A DNA stretch of 64,000 bases from Streptomyces sp. TS71-3 (lineage in GTDB: Bacteria > Actinomycetota > Actinomycetes > Streptomycetales > Streptomycetaceae): NCBI RefSeq assembly GCF_018327685.1, contig NZ_BNEL01000003.1, forward strand, positions 1,984,001 to 2,048,000. The letters run 5' to 3'. Made by a program: the position numbers and the translations under genes. Under the pieces are notes generated by a model. It saw only the letters and a program-made list of their open reading frames with translations, was not told where the DNA came from and did not search any database. Below are positions 42,432-50,957 of this stretch, piece by piece (position 1 is the stretch's first letter; each line of letters opens with the position of its first letter).

Positions 42432-42491
42432 GCAAGTAGGGACCGTTGGCGGCGTCCTCGCCGCGGTTCGTGGCCGGCGGGCCCCACCGCC
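42432..42491 (-). ncRNA. Fluoride riboswitch A (crcB operon)
   Basis: Minus strand reads GGCGGTGGGGCCCGCC (P1 and pseudoknot region), AACCGC, a GGCG/CGCC stem, then AACGGTCCCTACTTGC. This is the conserved order of the crcB-type aptamer. Its 3' end CCTACTTGC can pair with GCGAGTAGG at 42400-42392, which contains the Shine-Dalgarno of the downstream crcB. Confidence 0.88.
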
Positions 42492-42528
42492 GTGTGCGGG
42501 CCCGAGGGCGACCGCGCTCCCTCAGGTT

Positions 42529-42544
42529 ACCGGAAGCTTCCGGT
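42529..42544. terminator. Palindromic hairpin after enolase
   Basis: ACCGGAAGCTTCCGGT is a perfect 16-bp palindrome, 18 bases after the enolase stop codon and before riboswitch A. It is a likely terminator of the upstream operon and could alternatively be an operator. Confidence 0.5.
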
Positions 42545-42562
42545 TGTGGCTCGCCGGTACGG

Positions 42563-43831
42563 TCAGGGGTGGATGCCGTAGGGCAGGTCGGGTGAGGCGG
42601 CGGCGAGGGCGAGCAGCCGGTTGTACTTGGCGACGCGTTCGCCGCGGGCCGGCGCTCCGGACTTGATCTGGCCGCATCCGGTGCCGGTGGCGAGGTCGGC
42701 GATGAAGGCGTCCTCGGTCTCACCGGAGCGGTGGGAGATCATCTGCGCGTAGCCGGCTTCGCGGCAGATCCGCATGGCTTGGAGGGTCTCGGTGACGGTG
42801 CCGATCTGGTTGACCTTGATCAGGGCCGCGTTGCCCACCTCGCGCTGGATGGCCTGGGTGAGGATGCCGGGGTTGGTGACGAAGATGTCGTCGCCCATGA
42901 GCTGGACCCGCTCGGAGAGGCGCGCGGTCATGGTGGGCCAGCCGTCCCAGTCGTCTTCCGCCAGGCCGTCCTCGATGCTCCATACGGGGAAGCGTTCGAT
43001 GATCTCTTCATAGCGGTCGATGAGCTGGGTGGAGGTGAGCAGTTCGCCTGCGACCCGGTAACCGTCGCCGGTGGCGAACTCGCTGGCCGCGGGGTCGAGG
43101 GCGATCGCGATGCCGTCGCGGCCCGGCGTGTAGCCGGCGTCCTTGATTGCTTCGACGAGCAGGGCGAGGACATCCTCCGGGCGGTCGATGGGCGGCGCGA
43201 AGCCCCCTTCGTCGCCCAGACCCGTGGGGTGGCCTTGGGATGCCAGCCGTGTCCTGAGCCGTCCGTACACCTCGGCGCCCGCGCGGACCGCCTGGGGGAG
43301 GTCGGGTGCACCGAGCGGGGCGAGCATGAACTCCTGGAAGTCCAGGTCGTTGCTGGCGTGGGCGCCTCCGTTGACGACGTTGAAGTGCGGGACGGGCAGG
43401 CCGGGTGTGGTGCCGGCGACGTCGGCGAGGGAACGCCACAGGTCTTTGCCGGTGGTGGCGGACTCGGCCCGTGCGGCGGCCAGTGACACCCCGACGACCG
43501 CGTTCGCGCCGAGCCGTTCCTTGGTGGCGGTGCCGTCGAGTTCCATGAGTGCCGCATCCACGTCGGCCGCCGAGCCGAAGGCACGCCCGGACAGGGCCGT
43601 GGCGATCTCGCCGTTCACGTGGGCGACGGCCGTCAGCACGCCCTGGCCTCCGAAGCGTTCCGGACGGCCGTCGCGTAGTTCGACGGCCTCCCGGCTGCCG
43701 GTGGACGCGCCGGAGGGGACGCCGGCGTGCACGCGTGTGCCGTCTGCCAGGGTCATGGTGACGGCGAGGGTGGGGCGGGCCCGGGAGTCGAGAACCTCCA
43801 AGGCCTCCAGGTCGCTGATACGGAAGGTCAT
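42563..43831 (-). CDS. eno: Enolase (second, fluoride-island copy)
   Basis: 2-phosphoglycerate dehydratase of glycolysis, 422 residues, ATG at 43831 with AAGGAG. Catalytic landmarks are intact: VPSGASTGSREAVELRDG, GGAHASNDLDFQEFM, the base-pair region GLGDEGGFAPP, metal ligands in SIEDGLAEDDWDGW and LMGDDIFVTNP, Lys in ALIKVNQIGTV, and ISHRSGETEDAFIADL. Enolase is strongly inhibited by fluoride with phosphate and Mg. It is the third gene of the transcript headed by riboswitch B, so it is probably induced by fluoride. A streptomycete would carry a housekeeping enolase elsewhere; this would be a paralogue. Confidence 0.95.
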   Translation of the reverse strand: MTFRISDLEALEVLDSRARPTLAVTMTLADGTRVHAGVPSGASTGSREAVELRDGRPERFGGQGVLTAVAHVNGEIATALSGRAFGSAADVDAALMELDGTATKERLGANAVVGVSLAAARAESATTGKDLWRSLADVAGTTPGLPVPHFNVVNGGAHASNDLDFQEFMLAPLGAPDLPQAVRAGAEVYGRLRTRLASQGHPTGLGDEGGFAPPIDRPEDVLALLVEAIKDAGYTPGRDGIAIALDPAASEFATGDGYRVAGELLTSTQLIDRYEEIIERFPVWSIEDGLAEDDWDGWPTMTARLSERVQLMGDDIFVTNPGILTQAIQREVGNAALIKVNQIGTVTETLQAMRICREAGYAQMISHRSGETEDAFIADLATGTGCGQIKSGAPARGERVAKYNRLLALAAASPDLPYGIHP

Positions 43832-43934
43832 GCCTCACTCCTTTGCTCGCCGAGGGGTACGGGGAGGCCCGGGGATGTGCGTCCCCTGCGTCAGACCGCG
43901 TCGACCTGCGCCGGGGCCTGACGCGGGGCGACCG

Positions 43935-44444
43935 TCATGGGTGGTGCCCGGCCTCGGCTGTCCGTGCGTCGACCGTGCGGAGTCGGGAGTCCCCTATCTC
44001 CTTGAGGGCCTGTTCACGGCCCTCCCAGTGCGAGCCCTCGACGGATTTTCCGGGTTCCAGGTCCTTGTAGACCTCGAAGAAATGGGTGATCTCCAGGCGG
44101 TCGAAATCGGAGACGTCGGTGATGTTCTGAATGGTCGCGTAGCGCGGGTCGTGTGCGGGCACGCAGAGGATCTTCTCGTCGGGGCCTTGTTCGTCCCGCA
44201 TCGCGAACATTCCGATGGCCCGGCATTGGATGATGCAGCCGGGGAAGGTGGGCTCACCGGTGAGGACCAGCGCGTCCAGAGGGTCGCCGTCGCGGCCGAG
44301 GGTGTCCTCGATGTAGCCGTAGTCCGCGGGGTAGCGGGTGGCGGTGAACAGGAGCCTGTCGAGGCGGATGCGACCCGCGGTGTGGTCCATCTCGTACTTG
44401 TTGCGTGATCCCTGGGGGATCTCCACGGTGACTTCGAATTCCAC
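43935..44444 (-). CDS. ppa: Inorganic pyrophosphatase (family I)
   Basis: Hydrolyses pyrophosphate to phosphate, driving biosynthesis. I start at the GTG at 44444 because GGGGAGG precedes it; an ATG at 44480 has no ribosome binding site. The 169-residue product has all active-site segments: IPQGSRNKYEMDH, RYPADYGYIEDTLGRDGDPLDALVL with the three metal-binding Asp, FAMRDEQGPDEKILCVPAHD, and HFFEVYKDLEPGK. Family I pyrophosphatases are among the most fluoride-sensitive enzymes known. Second gene after riboswitch B, between an unknown gene and enolase. Confidence 0.95.
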   Translation of the reverse strand: MEFEVTVEIPQGSRNKYEMDHTAGRIRLDRLLFTATRYPADYGYIEDTLGRDGDPLDALVLTGEPTFPGCIIQCRAIGMFAMRDEQGPDEKILCVPAHDPRYATIQNITDVSDFDRLEITHFFEVYKDLEPGKSVEGSHWEGREQALKEIGDSRLRTVDARTAEAGHHP

Positions 44445-44537
44445 TACGTCCTCCCCAGGAGGTGTGCCGGTTTCGGTCATCGCTGATGTCGAGTGATCAT
44501 CGTTCGGCCGATCGGGGCGGCAGATGGCGTGAGTGGT

Positions 44538-49756: not shown

Positions 49757-49774
49757 AACGTGCCCGGCACACCG

Positions 49775-49793
49775 CTGCCGAGCAGGACGGCAG
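49775..49793. terminator. Hairpin between convergent sixA-like and gpm genes
   Basis: CTGCCG (49775-49780) and CGGCAG (49788-49793) pair with a 7-base loop in the convergent intergenic space. Confidence 0.45.
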
Positions 49794-49854
49794 TGTCCCA
49801 GGGACTGCCGATGGCAGGCGCACCAGGACTTGGCGCTCCCGGACGGACGCCCGC

Positions 49855-50616
49855 TCAGGTATGGCCTTCGGCTGCCACGGCCTCGGCGGCTACCCGGGCA
49901 CGGTCAGGATTCAGATACCGTCCACCGCGTTCCAGCGGACGCAGGTCTCGGTCAAACGTGTAAAGCAGCGGCGCGCCAGTGGGGATGTTCAGCTCCTCCA
50001 CCTCGTGTGCGGTCAGTCGGTCCAGGACCGAGACCAGAGCACGCAGCGAATTCCCGTGAGCACAGACCAGCACCGTTCGTCCGGAGAACAGCTCACCGGC
50101 CAGGACATCGACCCAGTACGGCACGACCCTGTCCACCATGTCGGCCAGACTCTCCACGGCCGGCACGCCGGCACCGCGGATGGCCGCATAGCGCGGATCG
50201 GCTCGCAGCTCAGCGAGCTGCTCCGGTGCCAGCGGCCCGGGAGCAGCGGTGAGCGACCTGCGCCAGCCCTGATACAGCTCCACCCCCGATTCCTGACGCA
50301 CCTCTCGTTTGCTCCGGCCGGTCAACGCCCCGTACTGGCGCTCGTTCAGCCGCCACGTGCGATACACGGGGATCCACGAGCGATCCAGCTTCTCCAACAC
50401 GATGTCCGCGCTGACCACGCAGCGTCGCAGGACAGAAGTGTGCACGACGTCGGGCCGCAGCCCGTGCTGCGCCATCAGACGGCCTGCCTCGGCCGCTTCC
50501 CCCTCACCCCGCACCGTCAGCGGAACATCGGCCCATCCGGTGAAGCGGCCGGCAGCATTACTGGTGCTCTGGCCATGCCGTACGAGGACCAGGAGACCAC
50601 CGGGGGCAACGGGCAT
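49855..50616 (-). CDS. gpmA: 2,3-bisphosphoglycerate-dependent phosphoglycerate mutase
   Basis: Interconverts 3- and 2-phosphoglycerate, the step before enolase. 253 residues, ATG at 50616 with AGGAGGGA. The catalytic LVLVRHGQSTSN, GWADVPLTVRG, TSVLRR, WRLNERQYGALTGRSK and the second His in VLVCAHGNSLRALV are all present, and length fits dPGM. Directly controlled by riboswitch E. With enolase and pyrophosphatase it completes a set of extra glycolytic/phosphate enzymes in the island; a housekeeping copy should exist elsewhere. Confidence 0.95.
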   Translation of the reverse strand: MPVAPGGLLVLVRHGQSTSNAAGRFTGWADVPLTVRGEGEAAEAGRLMAQHGLRPDVVHTSVLRRCVVSADIVLEKLDRSWIPVYRTWRLNERQYGALTGRSKREVRQESGVELYQGWRRSLTAAPGPLAPEQLAELRADPRYAAIRGAGVPAVESLADMVDRVVPYWVDVLAGELFSGRTVLVCAHGNSLRALVSVLDRLTAHEVEELNIPTGAPLLYTFDRDLRPLERGGRYLNPDRARVAAEAVAAEGHT

Positions 50617-50640
50617 GATCCCTCCTGGCTGCTGAGGTCG

Positions 50641-50690
50641 ACCAGGAACCGTCAGCGGTCACCGCTGCCGTTCGCGGTGAGCCGATCACC
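50641..50690 (-). ncRNA. Fluoride riboswitch E (gpmA)
   Basis: Minus strand: GGTGATCGGCTCACC, GCGAACGGC, a GCGGT/ACCGC stem, then GCTGACGGTTCCTGGT. CCTGG (50646-50642) can pair with CCAGG (50628-50624), fused to the gpmA ribosome binding site AGGAGGG. Confidence 0.88.
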
Positions 50691-50902
50691 GATGCGCTCG
50701 ACGCACCCATTCAGTGTGCACCTCCTTCTCGCGGGTCCACGGCCCACACACCGTGGCACGGTCCGCTGAACAGGTGCACCGTTTCGACTACACCCCTCGC
50801 CCCGGAGCGCAATGCCTGCTCATCGGAGAGGGACGCCGACCGATCCCAGCGCGGTGCCGTTCCCGTGATGGCCGTGACTCGCTACTGTGGCCCACGCACT
50901 AC

Positions 50903-50957
50903 GGCGGAGGGGCTCGCCGTAACCGCGGCACACACGTGTCGCCAACGGTCCCTACCT
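50903..50957 (+). ncRNA. Fluoride riboswitch F (third crcB/PAP2)
   Basis: Plus strand: GGCGGAGGGGCTCGCC, GTAACCGC, a GGCACACACGTGTC stem region, then AACGGTCCCTACCT. CCTACCT (50951-50957) pairs perfectly with AGGTAGG (50990-50996), seven bases before the ATG at 51003. TACTGT at 50883-50888 is a candidate -10. Confidence 0.9.

What the first reader, a model, noticed from the sequence alone, without database searches (positions are those of the whole stretch)
42432..50957. Six fluoride riboswitches in 8.5 kb define a fluoride-stress island
Seen directly: six copies of the crcB-type aptamer order (GGYGATSGGGCTCRCC-like P1/pseudoknot, AACCGC, short P3, CTGAYGG-CCTNN) at 42432-42491(-), 45101-45151(-), 48056-48101(-), 48537-48586(+), 50641-50690(-) and 50903-50957(+). 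Known: this RNA class binds fluoride and controls crcB, CLC-F, enolase and pyrophosphatase genes, usually one or two per genome locus. Inference: all genes between 41.1 and 52.3 kb, about a dozen, form one fluoride regulon on both strands. Such a dense cluster is unusual and suggests a coordinated detoxification and enzyme-replacement system.
Basis: partly seen in the sequence, partly recalled or inferred. Interest (0 to 1): 0.95.

Follow-up and report, generated by a model that had tools for sequence, protein, structure and literature searches.

The report
Six-riboswitch fluoride defence island
A bacterial genome (likely a Streptomyces) holds, within 8.5 kb, six RNAs of the fluoride-riboswitch family, each heading its own gene or gene row and together predicted to switch on 13 genes when fluoride enters the cell, among them extra copies of enzymes that fluoride poisons and a pyrophosphatase look-alike that has lost most of its catalytic residues.

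Summary
Rfam lists two over threshold, three below it, one not at all; a model from 12 aptamers of other genomes finds all six, and a crcB-class model gives the weakest (42430-42500) 77.7 bits. Stems and pseudoknot covary. Six genes follow a switch directly and seven lie behind them: three crcB, DUF190, enolase, pyrophosphatase, phosphoglycerate mutase, SixA-like, PAP2, Nudix, EttA-type ABC-F, a helical unknown, and a pyrophosphatase-like protein lacking most catalytic residues. In each leader the pseudoknot strand can pair with the Shine-Dalgarno stretch (6-9 bp), so translational ON switches are likely, although some leaders fail some tests. The kind is known (Enterobacter cloacae FRM: one riboswitch, eno, gpmA, ppaC, uspA, crcB). 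New to the papers searched: the multi-switch architecture (three or more sites within 15 kb in 5 of 295 genomes of the genus, this one included); the pseudo-pyrophosphatase (6 of 295 genomes, each directly behind such an RNA); ABC-F and Nudix as targets; and a crcB-class aptamer that Rfam scores under threshold but 142 of 295 genomes match. Fluoride binding and induction are untested.

The parts
42430..42500 (-). Fluoride aptamer of the crcB class, before crcB-DUF190-crcB; 9-bp helix 42440-42432 with 42400-42392 would cover the Shine-Dalgarno stretch
   Evidence: Rfam 18.9 bits; R1 23.1; R2 77.7 bits; helix
41898..42383 (-). CrcB fluoride channel, directly behind the aptamer
   Evidence: PF02537 98.6 bits
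41527..41901 (-). DUF190 protein, overlapping both crcB genes by 4 bases
   Evidence: PF02641 132.1 bits
41156..41530 (-). CrcB fluoride channel, third gene of the row
   Evidence: PF02537 100.4 bits
45095..45160 (-). Fluoride aptamer before the unknown-ppa-eno row; 9-bp helix 45105-45097 with 45093-45085
   Evidence: Rfam 33.3 bits, cut-off 34; R1 62.4; helix
44538..45077 (-). Unknown 179-aa protein, predicted all-helical, directly behind the aptamer
   Evidence: No Pfam or NCBIfam match; model pLDDT 84, no PDB match at E <= 0.001; an aptamer also precedes a relative in L021, L089, L093, L094
43935..44480 (-). Family I inorganic pyrophosphatase, second gene of the row
   Evidence: PF00719 190.2 bits; genome has another copy, 70% identical
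42563..43831 (-). Enolase, third gene of the row
   Evidence: TIGR01060 508.6 bits, cut-off 300; two other genome copies at 51-52%
48050..48110 (-). Fluoride aptamer before Nudix-ABC-F; 7-bp helix 48063-48057 with 48023-48017
   Evidence: Rfam 38.0 bits; R1 56.7; helix; fails the swap test and the accessibility test
47536..48009 (-). Nudix hydrolase, directly behind the aptamer (start chosen by the Shine-Dalgarno stretch)
   Evidence: PF00293 64.2 bits for the longer frame; Nudix genes also follow an aptamer in L066, L074, L075
45801..47465 (-). ABC-F protein of the EttA type, second gene of the row
   Evidence: NF008775 EttA 853.6 bits, cut-off 599; genome paralogue 68% identical; directly behind its own aptamer in L065
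48529..48592 (+). Fluoride aptamer before the pseudo-pyrophosphatase; 6-bp helix 48579-48584 with 48611-48616
   Evidence: Rfam 45.3 bits; R1 59.9; helix
48624..49187 (+). Pyrophosphatase-like protein without most catalytic residues; last part out of frame against relatives
   Evidence: PF00719 28.7 bits, cut-off 23.5; alignment of 9; 6 of 295 genomes
49223..49756 (+). SixA-like histidine phosphatase, second gene of the row
   Evidence: PF00300 39.7 bits; SixA TIGR00249 59.3 bits, below its cut-off of 74.5
50636..50699 (-). Fluoride aptamer with a weak pseudoknot before phosphoglycerate mutase; 8-bp helix 50648-50641 with 50629-50622
   Evidence: Not listed by Rfam; R1 44.6 bits; R2 15.5; helix; fails the swap test
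49855..50616 (-). 2,3-bisphosphoglycerate-dependent phosphoglycerate mutase, directly behind the aptamer
   Evidence: TIGR01258 279.2 bits, cut-off 81.7
50894..50961 (+). Fluoride aptamer before crcB-PAP2; 7-bp helix 50951-50957 with 50990-50996
   Evidence: Rfam 18.7 bits; R1 37.4; R2 48.2; helix
51003..51479 (+). CrcB-family channel, directly behind the aptamer
   Evidence: PF02537 44.9 bits, cut-off 32.9
51528..52259 (+). PAP2-family phosphatase, second gene of the row
   Evidence: PF01569 51.4 bits

Best explanation
This is likely a fluoride-defence island in which six RNAs of the fluoride-riboswitch family head six same-direction gene rows, 13 genes in all, and each RNA is predicted to act as a translational ON switch. 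Shown by sequence: the aptamers, their pseudoknots, the gene families, and in each of the six leaders a 6-9 bp complementarity between the pseudoknot's 3' strand and the Shine-Dalgarno stretch. Inferred: without fluoride that strand pairs with the Shine-Dalgarno stretch and hides it; fluoride with Mg2+ locks the pseudoknot, frees the stretch and lets translation start; genes further along the row follow by coupling or mRNA stability. Inferred roles: CrcB channels let fluoride out; extra enolase, pyrophosphatase and phosphoglycerate mutase restore inhibited lower glycolysis and pyrophosphate removal; PAP2, SixA-like and Nudix enzymes act on phosphate compounds; the EttA paralogue would slow ribosomes when energy falls; the pseudo-pyrophosphatase would be a non-catalytic partner or binder.
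For: R1 finds 6 of 6 sites, R2 the weakest at 77.7 bits; covariation of pseudoknot and stems. Unbroken 6-9 bp helix starting inside the pseudoknot 5-mer in 6 of 6 leaders (no random control was run for this count). Own pairing stronger than swapped pairing over 33 leaders, -16.4 against -13.1 kcal/mol, permutation p 5e-5. Blocking the pseudoknot strand frees the Shine-Dalgarno stretch in 5 of 6 window leaders. No terminator-like site in a leader. Same gene kinds behind such RNAs in other genomes. E. cloacae FRM precedent, where fluoride induces such genes (PMC5533749, parts 1-2 of 5 read).
Against: Rfam threshold passed by 2 of 6 only. Swap test goes the wrong way for 2 of 6 window leaders (Nudix -11.7 against -13.0; pgm -12.7 against -15.4) and for 6 of 33 in all; related leaders are in the set and the purine-rich Shine-Dalgarno stretch favours any pyrimidine strand. 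Nudix leader gets no freer (0.33 to 0.29). The pgm aptamer has a weak pseudoknot. ppa and eno lie far behind their switch. No sigma-70 promoter match was found, a scan that suits such genomes poorly. No fluoride data.
Confidence: 0.8

Rival explanations
1. The RNAs are fluoride riboswitches but act on transcription (intrinsic terminator or Rho) rather than on translation.
For: The best-studied fluoride riboswitches are transcriptional (PMC13273304 and PMC11077080, passages); the switch must reach genes such as ppa and eno, which transcription control would do more simply.
Against: No terminator-like site in a leader; the alternative helix covers the Shine-Dalgarno stretch in 6 of 6. Rho cannot be excluded.
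Confidence: 0.15
2. The pyrophosphatase-like protein is an active enzyme with a changed metal site, perhaps fluoride-resistant, rather than a pseudoenzyme.
For: Pfam places it in the family; the first Asp of D-x-D-P-x-D stays in 7 of 9 and the last in 1 of 9; low dN/dS in close pairs.
Against: The middle Asp is lost in 9 of 9 (Glu in L069), and the RNKYE, RIRLDR and YKDLEPGK stretches of the active copies are absent in 9 of 9. The catalytic roles are recalled, not from a call.
Confidence: 0.15
3. The island is a decaying relic: a mobile fluoride cluster that is losing function here.
For: Universal-stress-protein remnant between two leaders, frame change at the end of the pseudo-pyrophosphatase, weak pgm pseudoknot, transposase-type ORF and split transporter on the right, lower G+C over 32-56 kb (0.657-0.693 against 0.699-0.751).
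Against: The 13 listed genes have open frames; aptamers and leaders are kept; the same set is intact in other genomes.
Confidence: 0.1
4. Chance motifs in G+C-rich DNA.
For: Four of six sites are under the Rfam cut-off.
Against: Independent models, covariation and position before fluoride-type genes.
Confidence: 0.01

Closest known systems
Fluoride riboswitch (crcB motif), Rfam RF01734
   Same: P1, P3, pseudoknot, conserved A and U of the linchpin pair, position before crcB, eno and pyrophosphatase genes.
   Different: Three aptamers are at 18.9 bits or less or unlisted by Rfam and one is just below the cut-off; two (42430, 50894) carry G and C at a long-range pair that is A and U in most others; six in 8.5 kb.
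[quoted passage not shown]
   Same: crcB, enolase, 2,3-bisphosphoglycerate-dependent phosphoglycerate mutase, pyrophosphatase and a universal stress gene (a remnant here) with a fluoride riboswitch.
   Different: There one riboswitch before one six-gene operon and a Mn-dependent PpaC; here six riboswitches, a family I pyrophosphatase, and Nudix, ABC-F, pseudo-pyrophosphatase, SixA-like, PAP2, DUF190 and an unknown protein.
Plasmid islands of Streptomyces sp. F8 pFRL5 (L027) and Rhodococcus pRhX5 (L030)
   Same: eno, phosphoglycerate mutase or histidine phosphatase, crcB pairs, PAP2 (Rhodococcus), with aptamers found by R1.
   Different: Fewer aptamers at E <= 0.001 by R1; MFS, NhaA or universal stress genes where this island has Nudix, ABC-F and pseudo-pyrophosphatase.

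Membership tests
Fluoride riboswitch RF01734 | Score at or over the Rfam gathering threshold | tested here: not met
   2 of 6 sites met, 4 of 6 not. The two that meet it are members by this rule; for the others see the next rows.
Fluoride riboswitch RF01734 | P1, P3 and loop-tail pseudoknot | tested here: met
   Model matches for 6 of 6; covariation over 57 rows. The 50636 site has a weak pseudoknot.
Fluoride riboswitch RF01734 | A40 and U48 linchpin nucleotides | tested here: met
   A at the A40 place in 46 of 46 and U at the U48 place in 44 of 46 distinct aptamers (five window sites are among them, 50636 was filtered out and shows both letters). Linchpin role from PMC8752731 passages; the numbering onto these RNAs is mine.
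Fluoride riboswitch RF01734 | Binds fluoride and switches gene expression | not testable with these tools
   Needs in-line probing and reporters.
E. cloacae FRM type fluoride island | crcB, eno, phosphoglycerate mutase and pyrophosphatase with a fluoride riboswitch | tested here: met
   gene set from PMC5533749.
E. cloacae FRM type fluoride island | One riboswitch before one operon with PpaC (Mn-dependent) | tested here: not met
   Six aptamers and six rows; pyrophosphatase is PF00719.
E. cloacae FRM type fluoride island | Fluoride-induced and needed for resistance | not testable with these tools
   Needs RNA-seq and deletion.
Family I inorganic pyrophosphatase (for 48624-49187) | Sequence match to PF00719 | tested here: met
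   28.7 bits, cut-off 23.5; NCBIfam NF002317 28.6 bits, cut-off 200, not reached.
Family I inorganic pyrophosphatase (for 48624-49187) | Catalytic residues | tested here: not met
   Middle Asp lost in 9 of 9, last Asp in 8 of 9, three catalytic stretches absent in 9 of 9 (roles recalled).
Family I inorganic pyrophosphatase (for 48624-49187) | Pyrophosphatase barrel fold | tested here: inconclusive
   Model of P0002 has pLDDT 52; the six PDB matches at E <= 0.001 are pyrophosphatases, but TM-scores are near 0.3.
EttA (ABC-F) for 45801-47465 | Score over the NCBIfam EttA cut-offs | tested here: met
   NF008775 853.6 of 599; TIGR03719 840.4 of 806.75. Ribosome function not testable.

The most novel reading that the evidence does not exclude
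The fluoride response here reaches beyond export and enzyme replacement: fluoride-gated RNAs switch on a dead pyrophosphatase that works as a non-catalytic partner or a pyrophosphate/fluoride binder, an EttA-type ribosome throttle and a Nudix nucleotide cleaner, mostly through separate translational switches, and nearly half of the genus uses an unlisted G-C variant of the fluoride aptamer to run crcB-DUF190-crcB.
Probability: 0.35. Interest if true: 0.78.

Novelty: new variant of a known kind. Interest (0 to 1): 0.6.

Why it matters
It would show a toxic ion read by a battery of separate RNA switches instead of one, and gives a natural list of what a cell wants more of when fluoride enters. 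For the pseudo-pyrophosphatase, the EttA paralogue and the helical unknown I found no fluoride role in the papers searched. The crcB-class aptamer means fluoride regulation in this genus is probably far more common than Rfam-based surveys show: 142 of 295 genomes match R2 at E <= 0.001, 137 of them at E <= 6e-10, against 19 of 295 with RF01734 at E <= 0.01. Fluoride tolerance is also wanted for organofluorine synthesis and PFAS breakdown (PMC11139923, abstract and passages).

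Tried and rejected
Rejected or narrowed. (1) Chance motifs. (3) R1 match at 10752-10818 (-), 19.0 bits, E 0.0012: taken as noise, not examined further. (4) The unknown 179-aa protein as an island marker: of its 23 loci in genome contigs, 2 (L015, L020) hold too little upstream DNA, and among the rest only L021 has an aptamer before it at R1 E <= 0.001; R1 loci L089, L093 and L094 add further cases, L094 with the same aptamer as L021. So the link recurs but is not general. 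(5) S. cattleya pyrophosphatase locus L028: no R1 match under E 0.1, no Rfam match up to E 2. (6) Plasmids: no pseudo-pyrophosphatase by protein search; the DNA search gave one 46-base match in Halobaculum, taken as chance. (7) Fold of the unknown protein: no PDB match at E <= 0.001. (8) sigma-70 promoter scan: 0 found, 0.5 expected. (9) RNA search of 53-64 kb: nothing.

Rows dropped before counts. The swap test took 35 of the 42 sites (7 near-duplicates or sites without a clear start left out by hand) and lost 2 more for which the script found no Shine-Dalgarno match, leaving 33; 27 of 33 own pairings beat their mean swapped pairing. The long-range-pair tally keeps distinct aptamers with a full 5-pair pseudoknot only (46), which drops the 50636 site and the DUF2180 leaders. 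A first tally counted shifted copies and was replaced. Match lists were cut by the tool; rows of genomes with matches are complete there. R1 and R2 match their own training aptamers by construction (12 and 18 sequences). Their calibration is short, so E-values are rough. dN/dS over 15 pairs ran from 0.24 to 0.93; synonymous change is near saturation in the distant pairs. In one search the matches at 82 bits and below were taken as ordinary pyrophosphatases without checking each.

Papers. Nine searches. (fluoride riboswitch, Nudix, ABC-F, EttA; at least 2 terms): 83 papers, 10 listed, none of those 10 with 'fluoride riboswitch'. (fluoride riboswitch with pseudoenzyme): 0. Baker et al. 2012 is not held, so its gene list was not checked. 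Seen: PMC5533749 parts 1-2 of 5; passages of PMC11139923, PMC2864571, PMC7266159, PMC13273304, PMC8814607, PMC8752731, PMC11077080; all others as listings only. PMC11139923 says that S. cattleya uses extensive riboswitch-based fluoride regulation (passage), so riboswitch use in a near relative is not new.

Recalled, from no call: catalytic residue roles of E. coli pyrophosphatase, the A6-U38 pair of the crystal structure, EttA's energy-linked role beyond the listing.

Full report
What was checked. Rfam's fluoride model lists 2 of the 6 reported sites over its cut-off and 3 below it, and does not list the sixth. In the whole genome it reports 3 sites at E <= 0.001, all in this island. I built a model, R1, from 12 aptamers of other genomes. 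It finds all six window sites at 62.4, 59.9, 56.7, 44.6, 37.4 and 23.1 bits; the best other place in the 64 kb has 19.0 bits. The lowest site belongs to a class with a longer linker, and a model of 18 such aptamers from other genomes (R2) gives it 77.7 bits. On 57 distinct aligned rows the stems, the pseudoknot and a long-range pair are 97.9% paired, with changes on both sides in 84 cells against 24.1 in shuffles. The alignment was fitted to P1 and P3, so the pseudoknot (99.6% paired, 3 of 5 pairs with double changes) and the long-range pair (A-U 30, G-C 24, other 2) are the fairer part of that test.

Genes. Minus strand: aptamer 45095-45160, then an unknown 179-aa protein, pyrophosphatase, enolase; aptamer 42430-42500, then crcB, DUF190, crcB; aptamer 48050-48110, then Nudix and ABC-F; aptamer 50636-50699, then phosphoglycerate mutase. 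Plus strand: aptamer 48529-48592, then a pyrophosphatase-like gene and a SixA-like phosphatase; aptamer 50894-50961, then crcB and PAP2. That is 6 genes directly behind aptamers and 7 further on, 13 in all, each with an open frame. The ABC-F passes NCBI's EttA cut-offs; the SixA-like gene stays under the SixA cut-off. The genome has two other enolases (51-52% identical), another pyrophosphatase (70%), another EttA-type ABC-F (68%) and a second crcB pair. That second pair has its own crcB-class aptamer upstream, C3:2735594-2735664, 28.3 bits with R1 and 89.1 with R2, so these models give the genome seven aptamers.

Mechanism. In 6 of 6 window leaders an unbroken helix of 6-9 pairs (G-U allowed) can form between the pseudoknot's 3' strand and the Shine-Dalgarno stretch, starting inside the pseudoknot 5-mer (no random control for this count). 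Over 33 leaders the own pairing is stronger than swapped pairings (-16.4 against -13.1 kcal/mol, permutation p 5e-5), but 6 of 33, among them the window's Nudix and pgm leaders, go the other way, and relatedness is not removed. With the pseudoknot strand blocked, the Shine-Dalgarno stretch becomes freer in 5 of 6 window leaders (0.19 to 0.63, 0.05 to 0.17, 0.11 to 0.22, 0.27 to 0.38, 0.17 to 0.81) but not in the Nudix leader (0.33 to 0.29). No terminator-like site lies in a leader. A translational ON switch is the best reading; translational fluoride riboswitches are in print (PMC13273304 passage). Control of second and third genes is inferred.

How common. R1 matches 128 of 295 genomes of the genus at E <= 0.001, mostly one match a genome; 5 of 295, this one included, have three or more within 15 kb among the places listed (G000, G101, G176, G206, G233). 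I fetched 13 stretches. In them and in the plasmid loci the same kinds of gene recur behind aptamers: pyrophosphatase, crcB, Nudix (L066, L074, L075), ABC-F with its own aptamer (L065), DUF2180 (L064, L065, L066, L067), DUF211 (L064), an NADHdh-family membrane subunit (L066) and enolase (L030). Most of these stretches were chosen because they held a riboswitch match, so this recurrence is not an unbiased sample. Plasmid islands of Streptomyces sp. F8 and Rhodococcus carry overlapping gene sets.

The pyrophosphatase look-alike. Pfam assigns it to PF00719 (28.7 bits, cut-off 23.5). Besides itself the 5.8-billion-protein search lists 3 relatives at E <= 0.001. In 295 genomes, searched without regard to riboswitches, a profile (window copy included in it) separates six such genes (245 to 139 bits) from the next matches (82 bits and below). 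All six lie directly behind a fluoride aptamer: window, L064, L065, L068, L069, L072. In nine sequences the middle Asp of D-x-D-P-x-D is lost in 9, the last in 8, and three further stretches of the active copies are absent in 9 (roles recalled). dN/dS is 0.24 to 0.45 among L064, L065 and L069, and 0.24 to 0.93 over all 15 pairs, so close copies look kept by selection. A structure model was poor (pLDDT 52), though its best matches are pyrophosphatases. In the window copy the last part is out of frame against relatives.

The crcB-class aptamer. R2 matches 142 of 295 genomes at E <= 0.001, 137 of them at E <= 6e-10 (up to 18 matches are training sequences), while RF01734 reports 19 of 295 at E <= 0.01 and 6 over its cut-off. 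Of 20 class loci given to Rfam, 18 are listed at 18.6-23.9 bits and none over 34. Of the 24 loci L095-L118, 23 have a crcB gene downstream and L100 has none within reach. Among 46 distinct aptamers the long-range pair is G-C in 24, A-U in 20 and A-C in 2. I recall this as the A6-U38 pair of the crystal structure; no call confirmed that. Many G-C members are close relatives, so the number of independent changes is small.

Verdict. The kind of system is known from E. cloacae FRM (PMC5533749, parts 1-2 of 5). The multi-switch architecture, several targets and the aptamer class are new to the papers searched. Interest 0.6.

Noticed in passing
L095-L118; G000:C3:2735594-2735664: A crcB-class fluoride aptamer with G-C at a long-range pair and a longer linker sits before crcB in 23 of 24 loci looked at, and R2 matches 142 of 295 genomes of the genus; Rfam scores those tested under its cut-off.
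   Followed up: partly
L064 13060-13137, L065 12460-12537, L066 18627-18703, L067 5158-5237; candidate in L027 near 13590-13667: Small DUF2180 proteins follow fluoride aptamers with an extended linker; in L027 the aptamer is a pattern match with only 13.8 bits by R1.
   Followed up: partly
L064 11440-11502 (-), gene 11054-11338 (-): A DUF211 protein (98.1 bits) follows a fluoride aptamer about 100 bases upstream.
   Followed up: partly
L030 1967-2033 (+): On the Rhodococcus plasmid pRhX5 an R1 match (28.9 bits) lies about 190 bases before a metallophosphoesterase gene; Tni-type transposition genes lie beside this island.
   Followed up: no
52324-54675: Right edge of the island: an MFS-like stretch with a stop codon, an IS4/5-type transposase ORF (53448-53894 +) and a Na+/H+ exchanger in two pieces; described only.
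   Followed up: no
55032-56732 (+): A TrkA-C protein and a Na+/H+ exchanger family protein in a row; no aptamer was found in 53-64 kb, though such antiporters are known fluoride-riboswitch neighbours.
   Followed up: partly
34219-38064 (-): A 1281-aa protein with an nSTAND1 NTPase and WD40 repeats, of the kind seen in signalling or defence.
   Followed up: no
48042-48473 (+): A stretch matching only the end of the universal-stress-protein family (26.0 bits) lies between two divergent aptamers and overlaps one on the other strand; probably a remnant.
   Followed up: no
32001-56000: G+C is 0.657-0.693 in 4-kb steps here against 0.699-0.751 elsewhere in the window, in keeping with acquired DNA.
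   Followed up: no
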